NCBI GenBank assembly: GCA_029565415.1
Contig: JAKQOH010000191.1
Coordinates: 1 to 23,534 of the forward strand
Direction: 5' to 3'
Source of the DNA: Candidatus Rifleibacteriota bacterium
Lineage (GTDB): Bacteria; Riflebacteria; Ozemobacteria; Ozemobacterales; Ozemobacteraceae
Length of the DNA stretch: 23,534 bases
The notes beneath the pieces are model-generated. The model did not search any database. It saw nothing but the letters and a program-made list of their open reading frames with translations, and had not been told where the DNA came from. Position 1 is the first letter of the stretch. Each line of letters opens with the position of its first letter. A program made the position numbers and the translations under genes. Positions 8,301 through 18,424 of the stretch are shown in pieces.

Positions 8301-9793
8301 TCACGATGAAAGAGGTCACCGAACTGCCCGGCTTCCTCGGCGTGCAGGGCTTCTTCGCCGTCGCCTTCCATATCTGGGCGCATATTTCCTTCCCGAAGCA
8401 GGGTGAAAAATCGCTCTGTGCGGGAACCCCCGCGTGGCTGAAGCGGGTACGCGAGGTCGCGTTCGGCCCCCAGCCCGAAGGGGAAACGGAGGCCGGCACC
8501 TCGCTCGATATCGCGCTGCTGCCCTCGCTCTCGGCGTTTTTGCCGTTCATCCTGCTCACGATGGTCGTGCTCGTCATCAGAAGCATGCCCGACCCGTCGA
8601 TGGTGTTCGGCCTGATGCTCCTGCTCGCGGTGATGCTGCTGCGCCTGACGCACCTGCTCGCCGTCGACGGCCCGGCGATCGTGGCCCTGATGAGCACCGC
8701 AATGGTCCAGCTTTGCTGGCAGACCCAGCATTACCAGGGCGAGAACTGGCTGCTTCTCACCGCCTGGCACGCGGCCATCTTCGCGCTGTTCTTCGGCTTC
8801 CCCCTGCTGTACCGCGAACGCATGCAGAACCGCACCCTCCCCTGGATCGCCGCGGCGGCCGCGGGGCCAATCCAGTTCTTCCTGCTGTATCAGACGCTGA
8901 CGACGGTCCACGGCAAAGCCTGGATCGGTGCGCTGCCGGTTCTCTTCGCGGCCCCGTTCCTGTATGCGATGAAGGAGCTGGTCAGAAAGCTCCCCGAGGA
9001 GCTCCCCGGCCGGCTTTCGATTCTCGCGTGGTTCGGCGGCACGGCCCTCTTCTTCATCACGCTGGCCTTCCCCCTCCAGCTCGACCAGGAATGGCTGACG
9101 ATCGGCTGGGCGCTCGAGGGCGCAGCCCTGTGCTGGCTGTTCCTCCGGATCCCCCACCCCGGCCTTCGCCTGTGGGGCATCGCCCTGCTCGTGACGGCTT
9201 TCGCACGGCTCGCCCTCAACCCCGAGGTGCTCGAGTATCACTCCCGCTCCGGGATCCCGGTGCTGAACTGGTATCTGTATGCCTACGGCCTCGTCACGGC
9301 TTGCCTTATAGCGGGTGGAATATATCTCGCGCCGCCGCGGAACAGGCTGTTCGGGTATGACGTGCCGAAATGGCTCTTCTCGTTCGCGACGATCCTCGCC
9401 TTCCTGCTCGTGAACATCGAGGTGGCCGACGCGTTCAGCCAGGGCGCCCGCATCGACTTCCAGCTCAAGCTGAGCCGCGGCCAGGATCTCACGTATTCGC
9501 TCGCCTGGGCCGCCTTCTCGTTCGTCCTGCTGATCGTCGGCATCTGGACGAAGCGGCGGGGGGCGCGTATCGCGAGCATCGGCCTGATGGCCGTGACGAT
9601 CGTGAAAGTGTTCCTGTATGACCTGATCGATCTCGGCGGCCTGTACCGCGTGGTTTCTCTGCTCGGTCTGGCCGTCGCGCTGATGATGGTCTCGTTCCTG
9701 TACCAGAAATTCCTGTCGACCCCCGATGACGCCGGTCCCTCCGGGCGGGCGGGGGAGGCGGCAGACGACCCGAAGAAGGAGATGTCCGAATGA
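5351..9793 (+). CDS. DUF2339 family giant multi-pass membrane protein
   Basis: A 1,480-residue membrane protein of the DUF2339 (COG5373) family, whose function is unknown. In order: an N-terminal membrane anchor (residues 3-20); a charged heptad-like coiled coil (about 35-75); a Pro/Ala/Glu-rich linker (about 75-215); then the DUF2339 core, beginning IDWENFLGKKLF at 218 and continuing with WIGSFALFLSALFFVRY. It runs to the C-terminus as several dozen hydrophobic helices. The core with its FLG.KLFAWIG opening is diagnostic. Start choice: ATG 5351 follows GGTGAGAGG; an in-frame GTG at 5324 would add nine residues and cannot be excluded. The last codon overlaps the next gene as ATGA (9790-9793), so the two are translationally coupled. 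AT-rich codon islands lie at 7142-7165 and 9302-9328. Confidence 0.9.
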   Translation: MEGFLFLLVVGLLLYIIRSGQAQSGGDKPDAQEELKLRIIRLERRLERVNERLDIFSSELWSLKKNLSAPPAQAPDRLPAEEPDLEPPPTPREAVSATPPRVPEPAAAPVVATPSWKDALVEPLSPPGEVIPLAPPEPLPLTPIEQSSPIQPHEPLPPLPPLPVEPPPTAEEVTHESTRSTIDHSRAAMFHSDEPAPTDAAPPRRDESRPASAESGSIDWENFLGKKLFAWIGSFALFLSALFFVRYAIENDLVSLGMRLVLGFLVGSGSIAGGLWLKRYGYRQTVDGLCAAGLAILYAVFVAAHRLPAGDPYLGTAATFSLLTALTAGAFTLSVRLDSLFVAILAMVGGFLVPPFVSTGQDNPLGLFAYVTLLDAGLLAVALRKRWGVLITLSAVGTMLMQAGWVMKFFGAAKFQAAWLIFAWFPLFFTVARHLAAKRDWSDPHVENTARVVPLLSMWIVPLMTSTVTPVSIEDIAATGSLLRTLSEPAPAPIPLAVSHGGMIMALPYWLSALVGWQAYREAAASMFAKYAHILVFLLTWGWTGSGFRTDTAGTGWLLFAAYPAFFFALWRLTLRTRDDAELSGSARWSGLLGFTFNAYQLLHNDLGNDPAHVFSLTALLAVGLAWQAMKDESASPFHFGGGISAFTVIAIWASSYAVRDHTTAAYLAFLGFPLFFAGTSRLAALRGRLDATLKAGGRVFPLAGMVFASMLAGWEAYGSSPGLAFSLVLVIDLLLAWEARSDREAAPYHTYGCWATFAVLWIWGHQFGSAETAMTGSAAFFGFTVFYAAAWRIVRRLDGEADHLAYPARLAPLVSMTWVAWMLTEPALAAQPAKVLGLLFLLDLILTWQTIEDDGARPWHMGASIAGFALLMTWTTTALTEALLPVALGFYLLFGALHALLPIVLQRLRPSGEAYNWMHLYPALMLLVMIAPILNHTAAWPLMMPVIFLLNLVGLVASWLSSAMWIGIVMLTVTTGCFGAWIFTMKEVTELPGFLGVQGFFAVAFHIWAHISFPKQGEKSLCAGTPAWLKRVREVAFGPQPEGETEAGTSLDIALLPSLSAFLPFILLTMVVLVIRSMPDPSMVFGLMLLLAVMLLRLTHLLAVDGPAIVALMSTAMVQLCWQTQHYQGENWLLLTAWHAAIFALFFGFPLLYRERMQNRTLPWIAAAAAGPIQFFLLYQTLTTVHGKAWIGALPVLFAAPFLYAMKELVRKLPEELPGRLSILAWFGGTALFFITLAFPLQLDQEWLTIGWALEGAALCWLFLRIPHPGLRLWGIALLVTAFARLALNPEVLEYHSRSGIPVLNWYLYAYGLVTACLIAGGIYLAPPRNRLFGYDVPKWLFSFATILAFLLVNIEVADAFSQGARIDFQLKLSRGQDLTYSLAWAAFSFVLLIVGIWTKRRGARIASIGLMAVTIVKVFLYDLIDLGGLYRVVSLLGLAVALMMVSFLYQKFLSTPDDAGPSGRAGEAADDPKKEMSE

Positions 9794-11121
9794 ACCTGCT
9801 GATCCCCGTTCTCGCCCTTGCCCTGTGTTCGCCGGCGTTCGCCGCGGACGACACGATCCGGCCGCCGGCCGCCCGACGCGAGGTGTCGGAACGCTTCGCC
9901 CCGCCCGCCACCGGCCCGGTGAAGATCGCGTTCTTCGACGCCGACAGCACCCTGCGCGTGGCCCCCAGCGGCGCTCCCGCCGCCAACAGCGCGACCGACG
10001 TGGCCCTGCTTCCGCTGCTCGAGGAGCCGATGCAGCGGACCGAGCGGGACGGGTACCTGATCGCGATCGTCTCGAACCAGGGCGGCGTCCCGAAATACCT
10101 CACCCTCGAACAGGCGGAAGCGGCGATGCAGATGACGGTGTGCGGCCTGGCCTCGCGCGGCATCGCAATCCATTACTATGACTATGCGGAAACGTATGAC
10201 GAGAACCGCAAGCCCGAGATCGGCATGGCGAACCGTCTTGCTGAGGCGGTCCAGAAGAAATTCGGCCGCGGTATCGACTGGGCGAACACGATCATGGTCG
10301 GCGACTCGGCGTGGAAGAAGGGCGTCGACAACGAGCCCGACGGCAAACCGGGCGACGATCCGAGCAACAGCGACCGCCTGTTCGCCGAGAACCTCCGCAA
10401 GACATACGGCGGCGTCACGTTCCATCACGCCCGCGACTATTTCGGCTGGAAGAAGGCCGGCGTGAACAATTTTCATGACTATACATCTCTGAAGACCTGG
10501 CTCGAAAAGAGTCCCGGCAACGCGCCGGTCAACGTCCTTCCCGCATCACCGACCACCGCACCGGCAGCCGCTTCCCCGTCGGGCTCCGCGAAGCGCTGGA
10601 AAACCCCGCCGGCGATGGCGATCGACACGGCAAAGACCTACATCGCGACGCTGAAAACCAGCCTCGGCGACATCCGGGTCGAATTGCTGGCGAAGGAGTC
10701 GCCGAACACCGTCAACAACTTCGTCTTCCTGGCCCGCGAACGGTTCTACGACGGAACAATATTCCATCGTATTATAAAGGAGTTCATGATCCAGGGTGGC
10801 GACCCTCTCGGCACCGGCGAGGGTGACCCGGGCTACAGCTTCAACGACGAACTGCCCGCGAAGCACTCGTATGAACTGGGTATCATGGCGATGGCGAACG
10901 CCGGCCCCAACACCCAGGGCAGCCAGTTCTTCATCTGCAACGGCGATAAGGCGAAGAAGCTCGACAAACGGCCGAACTACACCCAGTTCGGCAAGGTCAT
11001 CGAGGGCATGGACGTCATTCTGAAAATCTCCGCCGTCGAGGTCGGCCCCAGCGCGAGCGGCGAAATGAGCAAGCCTCTGACCCCTCCCGTCCTGCTGACC
11101 GTCGTCATCGAGGAGCGCTGA
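9790..11121 (+). CDS. Exported HAD phosphatase-cyclophilin fusion protein
   Basis: A 443-residue two-domain protein. Residues 1-19 are a signal peptide (cleavage near FAADD), placing it in the periplasm or outside. Residues 44-240 form a HAD phosphatase of the HisB-N/GmhB/PNK3P type: motif I DADST (50-54, nucleophile D50, acid D52), motif II SNQ (95-97), a candidate motif III Lys (K141) and motif IV GDS (171-173). A Pro/Ala linker (about 244-275) leads to a cyclophilin-type peptidyl-prolyl isomerase (284-443). This keeps FHRII.EFMIQGGD (325-338) and MANAGPNTQGSQFF (368-381), which include the catalytic Arg and the Phe/Met/Gln wall. Frame and reading are continuous, so the fusion is real in this sequence. 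AAGGAG lies eight bases ahead, and the start overlaps the DUF2339 stop. Phosphatase substrate unknown. Confidence 0.88.
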   Translation: MNLLIPVLALALCSPAFAADDTIRPPAARREVSERFAPPATGPVKIAFFDADSTLRVAPSGAPAANSATDVALLPLLEEPMQRTERDGYLIAIVSNQGGVPKYLTLEQAEAAMQMTVCGLASRGIAIHYYDYAETYDENRKPEIGMANRLAEAVQKKFGRGIDWANTIMVGDSAWKKGVDNEPDGKPGDDPSNSDRLFAENLRKTYGGVTFHHARDYFGWKKAGVNNFHDYTSLKTWLEKSPGNAPVNVLPASPTTAPAAASPSGSAKRWKTPPAMAIDTAKTYIATLKTSLGDIRVELLAKESPNTVNNFVFLARERFYDGTIFHRIIKEFMIQGGDPLGTGEGDPGYSFNDELPAKHSYELGIMAMANAGPNTQGSQFFICNGDKAKKLDKRPNYTQFGKVIEGMDVILKISAVEVGPSASGEMSKPLTPPVLLTVVIEER

Positions 11122-11208: not shown

Positions 11209-11922
11209 TCAGTTGCCGGTCTTGTTTTCCTTCACGATGATCGTTCCGGCGGCGACCGGATCGCCGTAGGCAAATCCGAGTTCCCCCGAGCTGACGACGG
11301 ACTCGAACCGCTTCAGGATCGGATCCCACTTCTGCTCCGTCTCGCCCGCGCCGACCATGTATTTGTAGCCGACCGAGAGGGCGATGTAGAACTTCTGGCC
11401 CTGCTTGGAGGTCGTGAAGCACCGCCGCAGGTTCTCGTTGAACGCGTCGTCGTTGATGCCGACCGTATCCCAGGCTGCCGACTCCTCGTCGGAATCCGTG
11501 GAGAACCAGGCGACAGGCTCCCAGTCGGGAATCTGGCCCGTCGACTTCGGCCATGTTCCGGCGTGAAGCTTGCCGTTCTCGTCGCGATCCGACCAGAGGC
11601 GCCAGTAGAACACGTCGCTCTGCTTGTATTTCAGGTTGGCGCCCTGCTGCTTCTCGACAGCCTTGATGTACTCCCCGAACCGCTTGCCGGCCGGCAGAAT
11701 CGAGCGCAGGCAGATCGGGTTCCCGAAGGCGACGGTCACGTACGAAGCCCCGTCCTTCCAATCGAACGAGGAGGGATCGCAGCCGACGACGGGCGGGTAA
11801 TCACCGTTTTTGGCGATGACGAGGCCCGGACCGAAATGCTTGCGGTAGGCGGGATCGAGGTCGGCGGCAAAGCCGCATGTGGCGACAAGGGCGAACAGGA
11901 CACCCAGAACGATGGCTCTCAT
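11209..11922 (-). CDS. Exported protein of unknown function
   Basis: A 237-residue protein I do not recognise. Residues 1-19 are a signal peptide (MRAIVLGVLF..., cleavage after GFA). The mature part is soluble and rich in Trp, Tyr, Asp and Gly, with about three Cys (in VVGCDP, PICLR and RRCF). No catalytic motif is evident. Start choice: two in-frame ATGs lie six bases apart (11928 and 11922). The GGAGG site abuts the first and is seven bases from the second, so 11922 is preferred. It lies 76 bases downstream of nqrF on the same strand. That gap has no clear terminator or promoter, so it may be a tail gene of the Rnf/Nqr operon or an independent unit. The palindrome at 11156-11185 ends it. 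Confidence 0.75.
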   Translation of the reverse strand: MRAIVLGVLFALVATCGFAADLDPAYRKHFGPGLVIAKNGDYPPVVGCDPSSFDWKDGASYVTVAFGNPICLRSILPAGKRFGEYIKAVEKQQGANLKYKQSDVFYWRLWSDRDENGKLHAGTWPKSTGQIPDWEPVAWFSTDSDEESAAWDTVGINDDAFNENLRRCFTTSKQGQKFYIALSVGYKYMVGAGETEQKWDPILKRFESVVSSGELGFAYGDPVAAGTIIVKENKTGN

Positions 11923-11998
11923 GAACATCCTCCGAACAGCGCTTCAGTCTGCGGCTCACCCTCGATAAAAGGGGGCCGGCCGAGCGCAGCATACCATA

Positions 11999-13129
11999 TC
12001 AGAGGGTATCCGCGCGAATGTCTTTCGGATCGAGACCTTTTCCGGCAAGCACACTGCGGGCCGCCGCCACCATCCGTTCGGGGCCGCACAGGAGGGCGAC
12101 GGCCGGGGTTCCGGCGGGGAACCGGCGCTCGAGGGCTTCGGTGACGAGCCCGCGTTCGAATTCTCTCCCCTCGCCTCCGGAATCGTCCGCAGGCTCATCA
12201 GAACACCCCTGAACACAGGGCACATAGACGAGCCAGGGGTTGCGCGCCGCCATTGCGACGGCCCAGTCATGTTCATAGAGCCCCGTCCGGGAGGCCGCAC
12301 CGGCAAACAGCCACGTGGTCGGAGGCGCAGACCGCCCGGCCAGCGACAGGATCACGGACTTCATCGGGGCGAACCCGACGCCCCCGGCGACACAGACGAC
12401 CTGCCGCCCCGCATCCCCCTCACCCAGGGTCATTCCGCCATACGGCCCCGAGAACCAGAGTTCATCGCCCGGGGAGCGGCTGCACAGCCACGGCGTCATC
12501 TCACCGCCCGGAACATGTTGTATATGAAACTCTATTATTTCTGCGGCGGCCGGATCCGAAGCGATCGAGTAGGCTCGTGTCAGAGGCTCCCCGCCCTCTT
12601 CCGGCTGCCGCTGGAACATCTGCACATACTGGCCGGCAGCGAACTTCCAGCCCGGGGGCTCCTCGATGCGGACGAGGAGACGGTGAACGGCATGCGTCAG
12701 ATCCTCCCGGGATGAAACGACGGCCCGGACGAACGCCGCCGCCCGGGCATCCTCGGGCAGCTCGGCCTCGATTTCCTGTCTGACCCGGACCTGGCAGGCA
12801 AGGCGAAGTCCGGCACGGAGATCGGCAGGCGAGATCAGAACCTCCTCGGCAGGGGCCCTCTCCCCTCCCCCGCGCCGCACATGCATCCGGCAGACGCCGC
12901 AGGTGCCCCTGCCGCCGCAGGAGCCGGGCAGCAGGTAGCCCTCGCCCCGCACCGCCGCCAGGAGACTCTGTCCCCCCGCAACGTTCCGGGGTTCCGTCCC
13001 GTCGAGACGGAGAGGAACGTCCGGCCAGCGGCAGAGCACGCGCCGGACCGCGAGAATGGCCAGGCAAAGGCTTCCCACCAGTGCCTCGACGAGCAGGAGC
13101 GCCCGCAGGAGTTCCGGGAAAGCGCCCAT
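11999..13129 (-). CDS. nqrF: NqrF-type NADH dehydrogenase subunit (2Fe-2S, FAD)
   Basis: A 376-residue electron-input subunit that oxidises NADH and passes electrons through FAD to a 2Fe-2S centre. An N-terminal membrane anchor (about 7-28) is followed by a plant-type ferredoxin domain with ligands C71, C77, C80 and C112 (C-x5-C-x2-C...C). Next comes a ferredoxin-reductase module with RAYSIAS (185-191) for FAD, GGVGFAPM for NADH and a late CGPERM motif. Somewhat shorter than typical NqrF (about 400). The start ATG at 13129 overlaps the preceding stop as TGATG; longer upstream frames run into the NqrE gene and are rejected. NqrF belongs to Na+-NQR and is absent from Rnf complexes, which makes its place behind an RnfC-like ferredoxin unusual. 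The stretch EIIEFHIQHV is written in AT-rich codons, three of them ATA. Confidence 0.92.
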   Translation of the reverse strand: MGAFPELLRALLLVEALVGSLCLAILAVRRVLCRWPDVPLRLDGTEPRNVAGGQSLLAAVRGEGYLLPGSCGGRGTCGVCRMHVRRGGGERAPAEEVLISPADLRAGLRLACQVRVRQEIEAELPEDARAAAFVRAVVSSREDLTHAVHRLLVRIEEPPGWKFAAGQYVQMFQRQPEEGGEPLTRAYSIASDPAAAEIIEFHIQHVPGGEMTPWLCSRSPGDELWFSGPYGGMTLGEGDAGRQVVCVAGGVGFAPMKSVILSLAGRSAPPTTWLFAGAASRTGLYEHDWAVAMAARNPWLVYVPCVQGCSDEPADDSGGEGREFERGLVTEALERRFPAGTPAVALLCGPERMVAAARSVLAGKGLDPKDIRADTL

Positions 13130-13713
13130 CACCGGACCACCAGACCCGACAGGCAGCCGAACGCGAGGGCCATGAGGGAGGCCAGCGTCATCACCGTGCC
13201 GACGGGACCGAGCGCCTCGGGCGGCCGGCAGAACACCAGGTGCCGGCGGAGGCCGCTCATGATCAGGATCGCGACCGTCCACCCGATGCCGCTTCCCACG
13301 GCGTAGACGAGGGTTTCGAGGAAGCCGTAGTCTCGGAAGGAAGCGAACAGCGAGACGCCGAGGATGGCGCAGTTCACGGCCACGAGCGGCAGAAAAACGC
13401 CGAACGCGGCGTAGATGCGGGGGGAATACCGGTCGATGAGCGCCTCGAGGATCTGCGTCACCGCAGCGATGACGAGGATGAAGACGAGGAACTGGAGGTA
13501 TTCCATTCGATATGGAATGAGGAGGCGGCGCATCAGGAGCCAGTCCAGAACCGCCGTGACCGTCATGACGAGGGTGACGGAAAGCCCCATCGCCGCCGCG
13601 ACGGGAATCCGGCGGGAAAGCGAGAGGAAGGGGCAGAGGCCGAGAAACATCGATAGCGCGATATTATCGGTGAAGATCGCGGCGAGGAACAGCCCGGTGA
13701 GCCCCCCGGTCAT
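13129..13713 (-). CDS. NqrE/RnfA-type integral membrane subunit
   Basis: A 194-residue protein with six hydrophobic helices, of normal length for RnfA/NqrE. The N-terminal signature TDNIALSMFLGLCPFL (residues 15-30) and the mirrored VAVNCAILGV (111-120) contribute C27 and C115. In the known complexes the equivalent cysteines of RnfA/NqrE and RnfE/NqrD together hold a buried iron or 2Fe-2S centre that carries electrons across the membrane. The DN-IALS wording is nearer NqrE than the NNFVLS often seen in RnfA, but the two families cannot be separated safely by eye. The start overlaps the stop of the previous gene as ATGA, and its stop overlaps nqrF by one base. Confidence 0.9.
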   Translation of the reverse strand: MTGGLTGLFLAAIFTDNIALSMFLGLCPFLSLSRRIPVAAAMGLSVTLVMTVTAVLDWLLMRRLLIPYRMEYLQFLVFILVIAAVTQILEALIDRYSPRIYAAFGVFLPLVAVNCAILGVSLFASFRDYGFLETLVYAVGSGIGWTVAILIMSGLRRHLVFCRPPEALGPVGTVMTLASLMALAFGCLSGLVVR

Positions 13714-14366
13714 GACCGCCCCCCTTTCTCGGAACTCAAGGCACCCCGCAGCCAGCGGAAGCAGGCGATGGTCAGGGCCAGCACGAGAAATGCGCCGGCG
13801 GGCCGCTGCACGAAACCGCAGGACGGGTAGTCCTCGGGAAGGCAGGCCATGCCGAACAGGTGGCCCGTTCCGAGAAGCTCGCGTACCGCCGCGAGCGAAA
13901 TGATCAGGGTTCCGTAGCCGAGGGCGGCGCCGAAGGCATCGGCAAGGGCGATCGCGGGCGGCCGGAGAGCGGCGCAGGCCTCGATCCGGCCCATGATGAT
14001 GCAGTTCGTGATGACCAGGCCGACATAGGGTCCGAGGGAGGCGGCGATCTCGGGAGACCAGAGCTGGAGCAGCTTCTGAAGGAGGATGACGGGGGTCGAG
14101 ATGACGAGAAGATAGGTGATGATGCGGTAGGCGGGGGGGATCCGTTTTCGCAGAAGCGAGACGGTGAGGGCGCTGACGAGCAGGGTCGCCGTCATGATCG
14201 CCGCCATCACGGCGGCATACCGGACGGCGGTGGTCACGGCGAGGGTGGAACAGATGCCCAACACCGCGACGAAAACGGGATGCCGCTCTCCGATGCCGGC
14301 ACGGAATGCCTCCCAGGCCTCGCCGCGCCGCCCGGGTCCGGACGAGCTTTGCGTCTGCATCGTCAT
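13710..14366 (-). CDS. NqrD/RnfE-type integral membrane subunit
   Basis: A 218-residue, six-helix membrane protein paralogous to the NqrE/RnfA subunit downstream. The paired cysteines of the intramembrane iron centre are present: C39 in VLGICS and C122 in LVITNCIIMGRIEA. The latter loop, with the family-typical NC-I-x-GR-x-EA, is diagnostic. Loop cysteines at 175 and 183 (MACLPEDYPSC) are extra. An N-terminal polar extension of about 25 residues precedes the first helix. The start is ATG 14366, overlapping the NqrC/RnfG stop as ATGA; a second in-frame ATG two codons later (14360) is possible. It forms the membrane core with the next gene. Confidence 0.9.
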   Translation of the reverse strand: MTMQTQSSSGPGRRGEAWEAFRAGIGERHPVFVAVLGICSTLAVTTAVRYAAVMAAIMTATLLVSALTVSLLRKRIPPAYRIITYLLVISTPVILLQKLLQLWSPEIAASLGPYVGLVITNCIIMGRIEACAALRPPAIALADAFGAALGYGTLIISLAAVRELLGTGHLFGMACLPEDYPSCGFVQRPAGAFLVLALTIACFRWLRGALSSEKGGRS

Positions 14367-14932
14367 TTCCGGAGCCTCTTCAGAGCCTCGTCGGCGATCT
14401 TCACGACGGCGGCGCAGGAGATCGTGGCGCCGGTGATCGCCTGGACTTCGCCCGTGTCGGGGCGGGGGGTTCCGGTGGCAAGGCGAAGGCCGGCCGAAGC
14501 GGCGAGGCCGTCGAACCGGTTTTCGAACTCGGGCTCGGCGATACGGGTGCCCAGGCCAGGCGTCTCGCTCTGGGCGATGACGCCGAGATCCTCGAGACGA
14601 CCGGCTTCGGCATCGTAGGCGACGAAGAGACGGATCCGGCCCCACATGCCGTTTCCCTCCTGCTCGCACAGAAGCAGCCAGGGCCGCCGGCGGGCCCGAT
14701 ACACCCCGTCCGTGCGGCTGGGCACCGGGGCGAAGCTCGCCTGGAACGTTGCGGCCAATCTGTCGGAAGCCGAGGCCATATCCACGGAAACGCCGGCGAG
14801 GGCGAGCGCGCGCATCATGAACTCGGCCGAGACCCCGGGCGGGGGCCGGAGCATCACCTCACCGCCCGACATGACGAGCGTGCAGACCGCGGCCAGCACG
14901 AGCACGAACCCGATCTCCCGAAACGCTTTCAT
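14363..14932 (-). CDS. NqrC/RnfG-type subunit with covalent FMN site
   Basis: A 189-residue protein with one N-terminal membrane helix (about 7-23) and a soluble FMN-binding domain exposed outside the cytoplasm. The conserved SETPGLGTRI lies at 122-131 and the flavinylation motif ITGAT at 166-170. T170 is the expected site where ApbE would attach FMN by a phosphoester bond. The length is close to RnfG (about 200) and well short of NqrC (about 260), so the subunit looks Rnf-like. No apbE gene is visible in the window. The start ATG at 14932 overlaps the previous stop as ATGA; the open frame continues upstream to 15754 but only inside the RnfD/NqrB gene. Confidence 0.9.
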   Translation of the reverse strand: MKAFREIGFVLVLAAVCTLVMSGGEVMLRPPPGVSAEFMMRALALAGVSVDMASASDRLAATFQASFAPVPSRTDGVYRARRRPWLLLCEQEGNGMWGRIRLFVAYDAEAGRLEDLGVIAQSETPGLGTRIAEPEFENRFDGLAASAGLRLATGTPRPDTGEVQAITGATISCAAVVKIADEALKRLRK

Positions 14933-15861
14933 GTGATCCGACCGACGGCGACGATCCACTGGCGTGCCCGCCGGGCCACGACGCATGCGTCGGCAAGCGG
15001 AGTGACGAGATTCGTGAGCAGGAGCGCGGAGAAACCGGCCGGGACGGCCCCCTGCACCCGCACGAGCAGGGCAAAGAGGCCGCCGAACAGAAGCCCGCCC
15101 GGCAGCCGCACGGCCGGGGTGCGCGCCAGGGAGTATGGATCGAGACCGGCGGCGGCAAGCGCGATCAGAAAGCCGCCATCGGCCACAAGGGTGTCGATCG
15201 CGGGAATCGCCGTCGGCCGCCCCAGGAGGGATTGCACGGTCAACGTGAGAGCGAGGCCGGCCACGGCGCCGGCGGGAAAGGCGGCGTGGAAGGCGCGCCG
15301 CCGCCAGAGAAGCCCGAGCCCGGCCACGGCGAGGAGGGGCGACAGGCTCCCGGGTGTCACCGGGGCATCGAGCACGAGAAACCGCGAGGCGAGGGAGCAT
15401 TGCGGCAGAACCGGACAGGCCGCCCCATCCGAGGCCCAGCGCGTAAATCCGGCGGCAGGCTGGCTTCCGGGCATCGTCTCGGCGCCGGTGATGATGGCCG
15501 GGTAACTGACGCCGAGAAAGACGACGGCGACGGCAAGCGGATTCACGATGTTCCGGCCGTATCCGCCGAATAGCTGCCGAACGACGGTCTCGCCGAACAC
15601 GGCACCGGTGGCCAATGCCCAGAGCGGCGTCGCAGCAGGCAGGGCGAGGGGCAGTGCGGCCCAAAGCACCGCCCCGCGCCGGAAGGGTCTCTCGCCGCGC
15701 ATGCGGCTGGCAAGAACGGCCGTTGCATGGCCGACGACAGCCGTCACGGCGCACGCCGCGGCGACGCGCCAGCCGAACGCGGCCACCGCCACGGAGCAGA
15801 GGGCAACTATGTATACAATATAGTATTTTTCAAACTCAGGGTCGAAAACGGTCGTATTCAT
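14929..15861 (-). CDS. NqrB/RnfD-type membrane subunit, divergent at the flavin site
   Basis: A 310-residue polytopic subunit, shorter than RnfD (about 330-350) and much shorter than NqrB (about 410). Conserved landmarks are FGGYGRNIVNP (98-108; usual form FGG.GKN..NP) and, near the C-terminus, LDPYS (240-244; usual TDP.TS), then LLFGGLFALLVRVQG and LLTNLVTPLAD (281-291). These identify the family. Where relatives have a DG...ATPL motif whose Thr carries covalent FMN, this protein reads DGAACPVL (145-152) with no Thr; C149 occupies or neighbours that position in my hand alignment. The later GE motif is also missing, replaced by GSLSP. The start ATG overlaps the ferredoxin stop as ATGA. Family assignment is firm; flavin loss is inference. 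Confidence 0.85.
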   Translation of the reverse strand: MNTTVFDPEFEKYYIVYIVALCSVAVAAFGWRVAAACAVTAVVGHATAVLASRMRGERPFRRGAVLWAALPLALPAATPLWALATGAVFGETVVRQLFGGYGRNIVNPLAVAVVFLGVSYPAIITGAETMPGSQPAAGFTRWASDGAACPVLPQCSLASRFLVLDAPVTPGSLSPLLAVAGLGLLWRRRAFHAAFPAGAVAGLALTLTVQSLLGRPTAIPAIDTLVADGGFLIALAAAGLDPYSLARTPAVRLPGGLLFGGLFALLVRVQGAVPAGFSALLLTNLVTPLADACVVARRARQWIVAVGRIT

Positions 15862-16103
15862 GGCCTCGCCCCCCGTCCGGCGCGGGAATCCCGCGCGGCG
15901 GCGAAGACATCGGTCAGGGGAATCCCGACGGGGCAGGCGGACTGGCAGGTATGGCAGAGACAGCAGTGCATCAGTCCGGCCGCGTCGGCCTCATCGTCAT
16001 CCGTTCCGCGCAGAACCGCATGGAACAGCAGACTGGGAAACAGCCCGCGCGGACACGCCTCGGCGCAGGCGAGGCAGTTGACGCACCGGGCATGTTCGAC
16101 CAT
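15858..16103 (-). CDS. Stand-alone RnfC C-terminal-like two-[4Fe-4S] ferredoxin
   Basis: An 81-residue protein with two perfect C-x2-C-x2-C-x3-CP motifs: C7, C10, C13, C17 and C47, C50, C53, C57, plus an extra C48. The spacing and wording (ACPRGLFPSLL between the clusters, CPVGIPLTDVF after the second) match the C-terminal Fe-S segment of RnfC (ACP.GLLP..L, CP..IPL). The FMN/NADH-binding body of RnfC, about 300-350 residues, is absent. The gene is complete: ATG at 16103 follows a consensus promoter, the upstream sequence belongs to the divergent control region, and the stop overlaps the RnfD/NqrB start as ATGA. It probably docks on the membrane core in place of RnfC or NqrA and passes electrons between the complex and a soluble partner. 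That role is inference. Confidence 0.88.
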   Translation of the reverse strand: MVEHARCVNCLACAEACPRGLFPSLLFHAVLRGTDDDEADAAGLMHCCLCHTCQSACPVGIPLTDVFAAARDSRAGRGARP

Positions 16104-16111
16104 GACGGCCG

Positions 16112-16141
16112 ATTATAGCCGGATCGGCCATCGGCGATCAA
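16112..16141 (-). promoter_or_regulatory. Promoter of the Rnf/Nqr operon, positioned for a leaderless mRNA
   Basis: On the minus strand TTGATC (16141-16136) and a perfect TATAAT (16117-16112) are 18 bases apart. The -10 box ends only eight bases before the ATG at 16103, so transcription should begin at or next to the start codon. No Shine-Dalgarno sequence fits in between. Confidence 0.72.
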
Positions 16142-16196: not shown

Positions 16197-16724
16197 ATGA
16201 ACGGACGAGCCGCGCGCTCCGGCCGCCTTTTCCTGTTTCTGTTCGCTGTGATCCTCCTGACTGCCGCAACACCGGGCAATGCCCATGCCCAGACGGCTTC
16301 GGGCACGTCCTGTCCGGCCCCCGCTCGCAGTCTCGGCCAGGAAATCTATATTCCCATTTATTCACACATTTTCTTCGGCGATGCCCCCGCCCCGTTCAAC
16401 CTCACGAGCACCCTCAGCATCCGCAATACCGACCGTCGCCACGCCATCCAGGTGATCTCGGCGAACTACCATGACACGGACGGCAGGCTCATCCGCGAGT
16501 ATCTTCCGAAACCCGTCCTGCTCGCACCGCTCGCCTCGACGAACTGCCTCGTTCCCGAAAGCGACACGGCGGGCGGGATCGGCGCCTCGTTCATCGTCCG
16601 GTGGCGGTCGGCGATCCCGGTCGATGCCCCCCTCGTCGAGGCCGTGATGATCGGCACCCGCGGCCAGCAGGGCATCTCCTTCATCTCGCGCGGTCAGGTT
16701 CTGTCGGCAGAATCAGACAAATGA
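16197..16724 (+). CDS. DUF3124 family exported protein
   Basis: A 175-residue protein. Residues 1-31 form a signal peptide (basic N-terminus, LFLFLFAVILL core, AHA-Q cleavage). The mature domain carries the DUF3124 wording: IYIPIYSHIFFGD near the start, then LTSTLSIRNTD, LASTNCLVPESD with GGIGASFIVRW, and a final APLVEAVMIGTRGQQGISFISRG. The function of DUF3124 is unknown; it looks like a small periplasmic beta domain. AAGGAG lies nine bases before the ATG. The stop overlaps the antiporter start as ATGA, so the two proteins are probably made in fixed ratio and may act together. The IYIPIYSHIF segment is AT-rich in codon choice. Confidence 0.88.
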   Translation: MNGRAARSGRLFLFLFAVILLTAATPGNAHAQTASGTSCPAPARSLGQEIYIPIYSHIFFGDAPAPFNLTSTLSIRNTDRRHAIQVISANYHDTDGRLIREYLPKPVLLAPLASTNCLVPESDTAGGIGASFIVRWRSAIPVDAPLVEAVMIGTRGQQGISFISRGQVLSAESDK

Positions 16725-18424
16725 TCAGCGACATCATCCTCATCCTGATCGTCGGTCTGATCAGCGGCATCATCGCCCGCATGCTCGGCCAGCCTCTGTT
16801 TCTCGGCTACATTTTCGCAGGAGTCGTGGTCGGCCCCCATACAGGCGGCGCAACGGTTTCCGACATTCCCCAGATCGAGCAGCTCGCGGATATCGGGGTC
16901 GCCCTGCTGCTGTTTTCTCTCGGGCTCGAATTCTCGATGAAAGATCTGCTGCCCATCAAAGGAGTGGCCATCTGGGGCAGCCTTCTCCAGGTCGCCCTGA
17001 CATTCCCTGCAGGCTGGCTTCTGGGCCTGGCGACCGGCTGGCCGAACACCGCCGCCCTCTGGTTCGGCGCCTCGATCGTCTCCTCGAGCACGGCCGTCAT
17101 TCTCAAGACCCTGACGGACCGCGGCCACCTCCGAGCCCTGTCCGGGCGGGTCATGTTATGCATGTCGATCGTGCAGGATCTGACGGTCATCCCGATCATG
17201 ATCCTCCTCGGCAACGTCCTGAAATCCGGCCTGAGCCTGGGAAGCGCCCTGGTGCCGATCGCCTCGACCGCCGGCTTCCTCCTGATGATGAAGCTCGTGG
17301 GCACCTACCTCACCCCCCGGTTGCTGCGGTTCGTGGCCCGGTGGAACTCGCGGGAACTGTTCATGCTGGCGATCATCTGCCTCGGCCTCGGCCTGGGATA
17401 CATCACCCACCTTGCCGGCCTCTCCCTCGCGTTCGGGGCGTTCATCACCGGCCTCGTGCTGAACGAGTCCGAGTATGGCCACAAAGCCCTGTGCGAAATG
17501 ATCCCGATCCGGGATCTCTTCAGCCTGCTCTTTTTCGTCTCCGTCGGGATGCTGCTCGACCCCGCCCTCCTCTGGCGTCACGCCGGCACGATCCTGTTTC
17601 TGATGCTGACGGCCTGCGGCGGACGAGGTCTTCTGCTCGCAGCCATCACGGCCCTTTTCGGCTACCGCCGGATCATTCCCGTCGCCGCCTTTTTCGGCAT
17701 GCTGCCCATTTCGGAAATCGCGTTCGTCGTGATCCGGACCGGCCTTGCCGCCGGAGCCATGACCGCAGATATATATTCAATTATATTGAACACCGTCATT
17801 CTTTCGATGCTGTTCGGCCCCTTCGCGGCGGGGCTCGCTTCGCCCTTTTACGCCAGGCTTCGGAAACTTTGGCCGGACAAGGGCGTGACGACGGTCAACC
17901 TGCCCGAGGAGCCGCTGCGCGATCACGCGATCATCGCCGGCGGCGGAAAGCTGGCCCGGTATGTGGCAGCCACGTTGAAAGAGAGCGGCACCCCGTTCGT
18001 CATCATCGAACCGCTGTACCAGGCCTTCGCCGAAGGGAAGTCGGCCGGCCTGCCGATGATCTATGGCGAGCCCGGTCAGGAAAGCGTTCTCGCCGTCGCC
18101 GGTCTTCCCCGGGCCCGGCTGGTCCTGTTCACCGAAGGGGATCTGCCTGCAATGAAGGAGCTCCTGGCTCTGCGACGGGCGGAAGGCCTCGGCTTCCGCG
18201 CCCTGGCGAAGGCCGACCGCATCGAGGAACGCACGGAACTGCTCGATGCAGGCTTCGACGCCGTCGTTTTGCCGGACCTCGAGGGAGGCCTCGAGATGGC
18301 CCACCAGAGCCTCCAGGCCATGGGCCACCCGATACCGCAGATCGAGCGCCACATCGACCGGATCCGCCGGGAAGCGACCAGGAGCCTCACGGAGGAGCCG
18401 GCTTCAGCCCTGCCGGCAGCCTGA
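16721..18424 (+). CDS. CPA2 family cation:proton antiporter with RCK (TrkA-N) domain
   Basis: A 567-residue Kef/YbaL-like membrane antiporter. About twelve hydrophobic helices fill residues 1-385. Family landmarks are LGYIFAGVVVGPHTGG near 30, GVALLLFSLGLEFS near 65, GASIVSSSTAVILKTL and SIVQDLTVIP. A regulatory nucleotide-binding domain begins at D401 with HAIIAGGGKLARYVA (GxGxxA, with Ala in place of the usual third Gly) and FVIIEP, and ends in a helical tail. Such proteins exchange K+ or Na+ for protons; which ion is used here cannot be read. Start ATG 16721 overlaps the DUF3124 stop. The pair is divergent from the Rnf/Nqr-like operon. Only 25 bases separate it from the convergent M48 gene and no T-tailed terminator is seen. 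Confidence 0.92.
   Translation: MISDIILILIVGLISGIIARMLGQPLFLGYIFAGVVVGPHTGGATVSDIPQIEQLADIGVALLLFSLGLEFSMKDLLPIKGVAIWGSLLQVALTFPAGWLLGLATGWPNTAALWFGASIVSSSTAVILKTLTDRGHLRALSGRVMLCMSIVQDLTVIPIMILLGNVLKSGLSLGSALVPIASTAGFLLMMKLVGTYLTPRLLRFVARWNSRELFMLAIICLGLGLGYITHLAGLSLAFGAFITGLVLNESEYGHKALCEMIPIRDLFSLLFFVSVGMLLDPALLWRHAGTILFLMLTACGGRGLLLAAITALFGYRRIIPVAAFFGMLPISEIAFVVIRTGLAAGAMTADIYSIILNTVILSMLFGPFAAGLASPFYARLRKLWPDKGVTTVNLPEEPLRDHAIIAGGGKLARYVAATLKESGTPFVIIEPLYQAFAEGKSAGLPMIYGEPGQESVLAVAGLPRARLVLFTEGDLPAMKELLALRRAEGLGFRALAKADRIEERTELLDAGFDAVVLPDLEGGLEMAHQSLQAMGHPIPQIERHIDRIRREATRSLTEEPASALPAA

What the first reader, a model, noticed from the sequence alone, without database searches (positions are those of the whole stretch)
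11999..16103. Hybrid Rnf/Nqr operon: RnfC-like ferredoxin + D/G/E/A core + NqrF, without NqrA, RnfC or RnfB
The six genes overlap head to tail (four ATGA junctions and one TGATG), so they are one transcription unit. Known Na+-NQR is NqrABCDEF; known Rnf is RnfABCDGE with RnfB and full RnfC and no NqrF. Here the NADH-oxidising NqrF sits with a lone two-[4Fe-4S] RnfC fragment. This could be a pump that moves electrons between NADH and ferredoxin, or another soluble carrier, using NqrF as the NADH site. It may equally be an intermediate between the two families. The gene content is seen; the reaction is inferred.
Basis: partly seen in the sequence, partly recalled or inferred. Interest (0 to 1): 0.82.

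Follow-up and report, generated by a model that had tools for sequence, protein, structure and literature searches.

The report
Ferredoxin-tipped NADH-driven Rnf/Nqr pump variant
A little-known group of bacteria appears to carry an unusual version of a known membrane ion pump: it takes electrons from NADH like one relative, its usual output subunit has shrunk to a tiny iron-sulfur protein, and one usual flavin attachment site is gone, so where the electrons leave is an open and testable question.

Summary
Window 16103-11999 (minus strand) encodes a 2x[4Fe-4S] ferredoxin, RnfD/NqrB, RnfG/NqrC, RnfE/NqrD, RnfA/NqrE and NqrF in one overlapping operon, without NqrA, RnfB or full RnfC. The nearest named relative is Ozemobacteraceae (Riflebacteria). 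NqrF-driven cores without NqrA are not new: NqrBCDEF is in print for Pseudothermotoga, Clostridium ultunense and Izimaplasma, and I found more. New as far as searched: (1) the ferredoxin matches the C-terminal cluster domain of RnfC, sits in the rnfC/nqrA slot and recurs in five further sequences; (2) window-type complexes of this phylum form one clade (support 100, RnfE+RnfA tree), have lost the covalent-FMN Thr of RnfD (Cys in 9 of 10 window-family rows) but keep the RnfG FMN motif and nearly all RnfA/E cluster cysteines; (3) in 14 of 21 such loci an octaheme cytochrome gene directly follows nqrF, though not in the window or its nearest genome. Best reading: a NADH-oxidising pump with exchangeable outlets, the ferredoxin in the window, perhaps a periplasmic cytochrome in sister lineages. 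NADH to low-potential ferredoxin is unfavourable in this polarity. The reaction is untested.

The parts
15861..16103 (-). 81-aa 2x[4Fe-4S] ferredoxin matching the C-terminal domain of RnfC, in the rnfC/nqrA slot
   Evidence: Best NCBIfam hits RsxC 3e-11 and rnfC 9e-11, profile positions 366-432 and 362-429; best PDB hit RnfC of 8ahx (1.9e-9); eight cluster Cys, all kept in the 80-aa relative P0142
14932..15861 (-). RnfD/NqrB-type membrane subunit (310 aa); Cys149 in the column of the covalent-FMN Thr
   Evidence: PF03116 9.5e-30; motif column
14366..14932 (-). RnfG/NqrC-type subunit, FMN attachment motif TGAT intact
   Evidence: PF04205 5.7e-14; ITGATIS
13713..14366 (-). RnfE/NqrD-type membrane subunit, conserved cysteines C39 and C122 present
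   Evidence: PF02508 7.8e-44
13132..13713 (-). RnfA/NqrE-type membrane subunit, conserved cysteines C27 and C115 present
   Evidence: PF02508 5.7e-44
11999..13129 (-). NqrF (376 aa): N-terminal hydrophobic segment, [2Fe-2S], FAD and NAD domains
   Evidence: nqrF 1.4e-41; NqrF chain 8a1t_F 3.2e-35; C71, C77, C80, C112 and R185-S188 invariant and the GGxGxxP region invariant or nearly so in 17 aligned NqrF
16112..16141 (-). Promoter-like site TTGATC-18-TATAAT, 8 nt before the ferredoxin ATG
   Evidence: 10 of 12 consensus matches
11209..11928 (-). Secreted-looking 239-aa protein downstream of nqrF on the same strand (70-nt gap); membership in the operon not shown
   Evidence: no Pfam match at E<=0.001
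16721..18424 (+). Neighbour, not part of the complex: Na+/H+ exchanger with TrkA-N domain; homologue near the operon in L069
   Evidence: PF00999 4.5e-51

Best explanation
The operon encodes an ion-translocating NADH dehydrogenase of the RNF/NQR superfamily, of a kind found in one bacterial phylum (Riflebacteria, inferred). NADH gives electrons to FAD and then the [2Fe-2S] cluster of NqrF; the RnfA/RnfE cluster carries them across the membrane, coupled to Na+ or H+ export, to the covalent FMN of RnfG on the outer face. RnfD seems to have no covalent FMN of its own, so in the window lineage the RnfG flavin probably reaches RnfD directly. The electron returns through RnfD (riboflavin assumed) to the small RnfC-derived ferredoxin on the inner face, which hands it to a soluble or peripheral acceptor of higher potential than NADH. 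Shown by sequence: gene content, order, families, cofactor motifs, loss of the RnfD Thr, relation of the ferredoxin to RnfC. Inferred: assembly into one complex, direction, ion pumping, the RnfG-RnfD short cut, the acceptor. My judgement of the steps: NADH-driven membrane complex of this superfamily about 0.9; ion-pumping about 0.75; ferredoxin as the outlet about 0.55.
For: NqrF keeps its NADH, FAD and [2Fe-2S] motifs. The window keeps all four RnfA/E cluster Cys and the RnfG TGAT. All six ferredoxins compared (window, P0142, L118, L119, L140, L142) have RnfC or RsxC, C-terminal part, as best NCBIfam hit; the five whose place is known lie directly upstream of rnfD (of an RnfD-RnfG fusion in L142). 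RnfD keeps more of the conserved pattern where the ferredoxin is present: 6 to 9 of 24 conserved columns changed in 4 of 4 ferredoxin-bearing loci (window, L118, L119, L140) against 11 to 15 of 24 in 10 of 10 without it (the ten form one clade, so this is one comparison, not ten; L142, L116 and L127 were left out for fused or partial RnfD). An RnfD-like protein without flavinylation site, where the covalent flavin of its partner is proposed to sample the site, is in print for two-subunit Nqr/Rnf-like complexes (PMC11334425, passages). G442 shows no rnfB, nqrA or rnf-type rnfC at the thresholds used.
Against: No biochemistry. Within the window's own family the ferredoxin is seen only in the window and P0142: that search returned 2 proteins against 13 window-family NqrF in the same database, and in G442 the contig begins inside rnfD. 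In L118 the ferredoxin frame has no stop before rnfD and runs over its start, so that copy may be frameshifted. The window's RnfD is not beyond the background (0.25 deviant conserved columns against a maximum of 0.26 in 26 comparison loci), and its RnfE+RnfA are raised too (0.20). RnfA of L140 has Thr for the second cluster Cys. Sister lineages carry cytochromes, which argues for a periplasmic outlet at least there. Both AlphaFold models failed (mean pLDDT 58.2 and 43.2).
Confidence: 0.5

Rival explanations
1. Periplasmic outlet: electrons leave at the RnfG flavin into multihaem c-type cytochromes and RnfD is vestigial or structural; the complex is an NADH-driven electron exporter, possibly for nitrite or hydroxylamine reduction or extracellular acceptors.
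For: An eight-CxxCH gene starts between 14 nt before and 59 nt after the nqrF stop in 14 of 21 window-type loci of the phylum; no such gene was seen after nqrF in 9 ordinary NqrBCDEF loci of the same phylum (in L143 only 357 nt and in L121 only 702 nt are visible downstream). The six octahemes scanned (L117, L118, L126, L130, L134, L136) all hit PF13447 and, far below its cut-off, hydrazine dehydrogenase. L118 and L119 also have a three-CxxCH gene upstream (L118's is a c7-type triheme). The RnfD FMN Thr is lost. Rnf to the cytochrome MmcA is proposed in Methanosarcina (PMC6703419, passages).
Against: No multihaem gene in the window: three ORFs with a single CxxCH each. G442 has no PF13447 match at E<=1e-6. 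L116, L119, L133, L135, L140 and L142 have no adjacent octaheme and L129 has one 5 kb away. The window keeps a ferredoxin without export signal (by eye).
Confidence: 0.27
2. NADH:quinone oxidoreductase: it works as an NQR without NqrA, RnfD reduces menaquinone, and the ferredoxin is accessory.
For: Gene order equals nqrBCDEF; NqrA carries no cofactor (PMC12174285, passages); many NqrA-less operons exist.
Against: RnfD is 310 aa against 401 and 404 aa for the two NqrB here and lacks the covalent-FMN Thr. A conserved two-cluster ferredoxin has no role in this model. Quinone synthesis genes were not tested.
Confidence: 0.15
3. One reading: a pump coupling NADH and low-potential ferredoxin.
For: A ferredoxin is the only other soluble redox protein in the operon.
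Against: In the known polarity electrons entering at NqrF and leaving at the RnfC slot export ions, so reducing a low-potential ferredoxin with NADH would be uphill twice, and the reverse would spend the gradient (inference from the mechanism in PMC12174285, passages).
Confidence: 0.06
4. Decayed or misassembled remnant with no function.
For: RnfD and the ferredoxin are short and diverged; the core subunits and NqrF score below the NCBIfam cut-offs.
Against: All six frames are open with tight overlaps; the ferredoxin keeps all eight Cys in P0142; NqrF is 63-77% identical in 12 relatives; window-type loci occur in many genomes of the phylum.
Confidence: 0.02

Closest known systems
NqrA-less NqrBCDEF operons (Pseudothermotoga thermarum, P. 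lettingae, Clostridium ultunense, Izimaplasma ZiA1)
   Same: Order B-C-D-E-F with NqrF; for the first three the papers state that NqrA is missing and the acceptor is unknown (PMC4148951, PMC5924567; passages); PMC6256511 only names NqrBCDEF (passage)
   Different: The 19 ordinary loci of this type that I aligned keep the RnfD/NqrB FMN Thr; none of the 12 ordinary loci showed a match to the window ferredoxin upstream; in the RnfE+RnfA tree the window-type clade is separate from them. The published operons themselves were not aligned here
Na+-NQR (NqrABCDEF)
   Same: NqrF input module; B-C-D-E-F order; shared core
   Different: No NqrA; short RnfD-like B subunit; covalent-FMN Thr absent; ferredoxin in the NqrA slot
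RNF (RnfCDGEAB)
   Same: DGEA core; ferredoxin homologous to the RnfC C-terminal domain
   Different: No RnfB and no N-terminal part of RnfC; NqrF instead
Two-subunit Nqr/Rnf-like flavinylation systems (PMC8238504, PMC11334425; passages)
   Same: An RnfD-type protein without a flavinylation site beside a flavinylated RnfG-type protein
   Different: Those have two subunits with an NqrF-type NAD domain fused to RnfD; the window has the RnfA/E core and a separate NqrF
Rnf with cytochrome MmcA in Methanosarcina (PMC6703419, passages)
   Same: An Rnf-type core linked to a multihaem cytochrome, as in relatives of the window
   Different: Has RnfB and RnfC, no NqrF; no octaheme family link tested

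Membership tests
Na+-NQR | NqrA subunit | tested here: not met
   None in the operon; none in G442 at E<=1e-10; 3 of 39 genomes of the phylum have one over the cut-off
Na+-NQR | NqrF with [2Fe-2S], FAD and NADH sites and N-terminal membrane segment | tested here: met
   the membrane segment was judged by eye
Na+-NQR | Scores over NCBIfam cut-offs | tested here: not met
   nqrF 142.8 of 295, nqrD 160.3 of 244.85, nqrE 174.3 of 247.55, nqrB 62.1 of 349.9, nqrC 49.8 of 144 bits
Na+-NQR | Covalent FMN on the B subunit (Thr) | tested here: not met
   Cys149 in the Thr column; 34 of 34 comparison rows have T or S there; flavin itself not measured
Na+-NQR | Quinone reduction | not testable with these tools
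   needs the enzyme
RNF | RnfB ferredoxin-oxidising subunit | tested here: not met
   None in the operon; none in G442 at E<=1e-20
RNF | Full-length RnfC | tested here: not met
   Only positions about 362-432 of 435 matched; stop codon just upstream
RNF | Scores over NCBIfam cut-offs | tested here: not met
   rnfA 171.7 of 229.3, rnfE 127.3 of 213.4, rnfD 73.8 of 207.05, rnfG 62.2 of 102 bits
NqrA-less NqrBCDEF class | Contiguous B-C-D-E-F without NqrA/RnfC | tested here: met
NqrA-less NqrBCDEF class | RnfD/NqrB FMN-bearing Thr | tested here: not met
   19 of 19 ordinary loci have T, the window has C
RNF/NQR superfamily core | RnfA/E (NqrE/D) cluster cysteines and RnfG (NqrC) FMN motif | tested here: met
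RNF/NQR superfamily core | Redox-driven Na+ or H+ export | not testable with these tools
   needs vesicle assays

The most novel reading that the evidence does not exclude
In this phylum the RNF/NQR pump has become a modular NADH-driven core whose output end is exchangeable: RnfC reduced to a detached ferredoxin serving a new cytosolic acceptor in the window lineage, and an octaheme cytochrome taking electrons directly from RnfG on the outer face in sister lineages. The RnfD flavin is dispensable, so redox-driven ion transport must run through RnfA/RnfE. The conserved Cys in place of the Thr may even hold a flavin in a different way.
Probability: 0.35. Interest if true: 0.82.

Novelty: new variant of a known kind. 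Interest (0 to 1): 0.6.

Why it matters
Where RNF/NQR complexes pump is not settled: the review PMC12174285 (passages) shows one scheme via RnfA-E for RNF and another via NqrB for Vibrio NQR. Here nature offers complexes that kept A/E and RnfG but seem to have lost the RnfD flavin site. If such a complex still pumps, the A/E scheme gains strongly. It also shows the output end of this respiratory family cut down or exchanged, and suggests an NADH-driven route into octaheme cytochromes in uncultured bacteria.

Tried and rejected
Rejected: truncation or assembly error of rnfC (in-frame stop and promoter-like site upstream). Rejected: G442 C179 as a hidden rnfC; it lies beside aldehyde-dehydrogenase- and Pdu-like genes and looks like PduS (recognised by eye). 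Rejected: a cytochrome in the window; the CxxCH in the ferredoxin is part of its iron-sulfur motif.

Led nowhere: the genome-contig scan gave only 8 distant RNF/NQR loci; plasmids none; viral contigs none; no tRNA or Rfam hit in the window; AlphaFold of RnfD (mean pLDDT 58.2) and of the ferredoxin (43.2) too poor, so no fold search was made.

Against a tidy picture: the NqrF tree does not recover the window-type clade cleanly; L075, L132 and P0048 fall among its members with support 48, the wider group having 89. The conserved-column measure does not single out the window's RnfD. In one search seven near-duplicate loci (L061, L008, L120, L121, L123, L125, L143) were dropped from the background; L131 and L063 were left out as fragments.

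Print searches: the ferredoxin-tipped version and the link of an NqrF operon to an octaheme did not turn up in searches (open-access library only; listings and passages seen, no whole paper read).
Full report
What is there. Six minus-strand genes from 16103 to 11999 encode an 81-aa ferredoxin, RnfD/NqrB, RnfG/NqrC, RnfE/NqrD, RnfA/NqrE and NqrF. Four junctions are ATGA and one TGATG. A promoter-like site (10/12, the best of three found in the region, 0.5 expected) ends 8 nt before the ferredoxin ATG, and a stop codon lies four codons upstream in frame, so the ferredoxin looks complete and first in the operon.

Organism. No own genome is held. The closest ferredoxin, P0142, is named 'Candidatus Ozemobacteraceae bacterium'; Ozemobacteraceae are placed in Riflebacteria by PMC11879220 (passage). 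The closest genome reached, G442, has an NqrF 66% identical to the window's and next to P0028 in the NqrF tree. It belongs to 39 genomes returned as 'phylum of G165'. The tool names no phylum; that it is Riflebacteria is my inference. Homologues of window neighbours lie near the operon in some of these loci: the Na+/H+ exchanger in 1, the MFS protein in 4 and the EF-hand protein in 7 of the 32 loci scanned.

Relatives. RnfD has 9 close relatives at 44-53% identity, NqrF 12 at 63-77%. Five contig lengths besides the window's (15899, 14578, 26861, 136106, 58350) occur in both lists, which suggests linkage but does not prove it. The ferredoxin search returned only the window and P0142, so its presence in the other relatives is unknown.

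A wider class. The RnfD alignment found only 8 distant loci in genome contigs. From one of their genomes, 60 relatives gave one full-length NqrF-like match, in G048; of 386 relatives of G048, 22 had a match at E<=1e-50. Of 20 regions fetched, one was a true NQR (L079); four had an RnfC/NqrA-like gene with DGEA and NqrF (L062, L065, L076, L077), and L033 of G048 is a fifth; 13 had the RnfD-to-NqrF set without such a gene in the stretch seen (L075 with its genes spaced apart; L069 is one of the 13 and proved to be window-type); L063 and L074 were cut by contig ends. I gave 19 of the 22 genomes to an rnfC search: 18 of 19 have an rnfC over the cut-off besides the operon in question, the nineteenth being the true NQR genome. 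NqrA-less NqrBCDEF is in print: PMC4148951 says the other participant besides NADH is unknown, PMC5924567 likewise notes the missing NqrA, PMC6256511 names the set (passages). So the headline of the finding is partly known.

The phylum's own version. Of the 39 genomes, 22 have an NqrF-like match at E<=1e-60, at 30 places. I examined all 30 (28 regions, plus L064 and L069). Nine are ordinary NqrBCDEF type (L064, L120-L125, L132, L143). Twenty-one are window-type by core or NqrF similarity; seven of these lack a complete recognised core in the stretch (L116 and L127 with partial RnfD; L117, L129, L131, L133, L139). In a tree of RnfE+RnfA (52 loci, 396 columns) the window-type loci included form one clade with support 100, RNF is separate (98), and true NQR (L079) lies among the other NqrF-bearing cores. 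The NqrF tree is less clean.

The lost flavin site. In the RnfD alignment the column of the FMN-bearing Thr is T or S in 34 of 34 RNF, NQR and other NqrF-bearing rows (two RNF rows, L002 and L007, lack the usual motif around it). In the window family it is Cys in 9 of 10 rows and deleted in one. In the other window-type loci it is R, K, A, E, I or deleted in 13 of 15 and Ser in an unusual context in 2 (L119, L140). A pairwise alignment to a PDB chain put Ala, not Cys, opposite that Thr: which residue replaces it depends on the alignment, the loss of Thr in the window does not. The RnfG motif is present in the window and in all 16 other window-type RnfG read. The RnfE cysteines are kept in 18 of 18 and the RnfA cysteines in 20 of 20 and 19 of 20 other window-type rows (Thr in L140), and all four are present in the window. 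At otherwise conserved RnfD columns the window deviates at 6 of 24, within the background (maximum 0.26 over 26 loci), the other window-type loci at 7 to 15 of 24.

The ferredoxin. Window, P0142, L118, L119, L140 and L142 each have RnfC or RsxC, C-terminal part, as best NCBIfam hit (L142 matches mainly over its first half). I read it as the excised cluster domain of RnfC. Among 14 window-type loci of the phylum with a full RnfD (L142 as an RnfD-RnfG fusion), 4 have the ferredoxin directly upstream; in L118 its frame runs past the rnfD start without a stop. Loci with it have the less degenerate RnfD, which suggests the two work together; the loci without it form one clade, so this is a single comparison.

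The cytochrome link. In 14 of the 21 window-type loci an eight-CxxCH gene starts from 14 nt before to 59 nt after the nqrF stop (L117 and L118 have two such genes); L129 has one 5 kb away; L116, L119, L133, L135, L140 and L142 show none within what was fetched. None of the nine ordinary loci of the phylum shows one, though in L143 only 357 nt downstream are visible. Six scanned octahemes match PF13447; all six also match hydrazine dehydrogenase far below its cut-off. That this is the HAO family of octahemes is my recollection, and the substrate is open. Nine of 10 ferredoxin-less loci with full RnfD have the octaheme, 1 of 4 ferredoxin-bearing ones does. The window and G442 show none.

Proxy for the genome test. 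G442: no nqrA, no rnfB at E<=1e-20, no rnfC except a PduS-like gene, an ApbE fragment at a contig edge. In the phylum, rnfC over the cut-off is in 24 of 39 genomes, ApbE in 34 of 39, nqrA in 3 of 39. Completeness is not told, so absences are weak.

Mechanism. See best explanation. The argument on direction rests on the RNF/NQR polarity in PMC12174285 (passages): input at RnfB/NqrF, output at RnfC or quinone, ion export in that direction. With NADH at the input, the output must have a higher potential. The acceptor is unknown; anaerobic sulfite reduction by asrABC is reported for Ozemobacteraceae (PMC10811913, passage), which I mention only as a lead.

Verdict. Observation confirmed, interpretation partly supported, new variant of a known kind.

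Noticed in passing
window 9790-11121 (+): One protein joins a polynucleotide 3'-phosphatase-like domain (PF08645) to a cyclophilin domain (PF00160), an unusual-looking fusion.
   Followed up: no
window 16721-18424 (+) and L069 9460-11055: A Na+/H+ exchanger with TrkA-N domain sits beside the operon in the window and near it in L069, perhaps linked to ion cycling.
   Followed up: partly
L033, L062, L065, L076, L077: Operons with an RnfC/NqrA-like gene, DGEA core and NqrF: better candidates for intermediates between RNF and NQR than the window.
   Followed up: partly
L118 4530-16999: A cytochrome island around the operon: a c7-type triheme, two octahemes, a 12-CxxCH protein close to DmsE-type decahaem cytochromes and a 6-CxxCH ORF.
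   Followed up: partly
L142 8973-10256 (-): RnfD and RnfG appear fused into one 428-aa protein in which the flavin loop of RnfD is missing.
   Followed up: no
L001 10818-12254 (+): The Methylobacter luteus NQR operon seems to go from nqrC straight to nqrE; no nqrD-like ORF was seen in the locus.
   Followed up: no
L036 and L033 (same contig of G048): A complete RNF operon and an operon with RnfC plus NqrF lie on one contig, so both kinds coexist.
   Followed up: partly
window 11209-11928 (-): Secreted-looking 239-aa protein without Pfam match just downstream of nqrF, where 14 window-type loci of the phylum carry the octaheme gene.
   Followed up: partly
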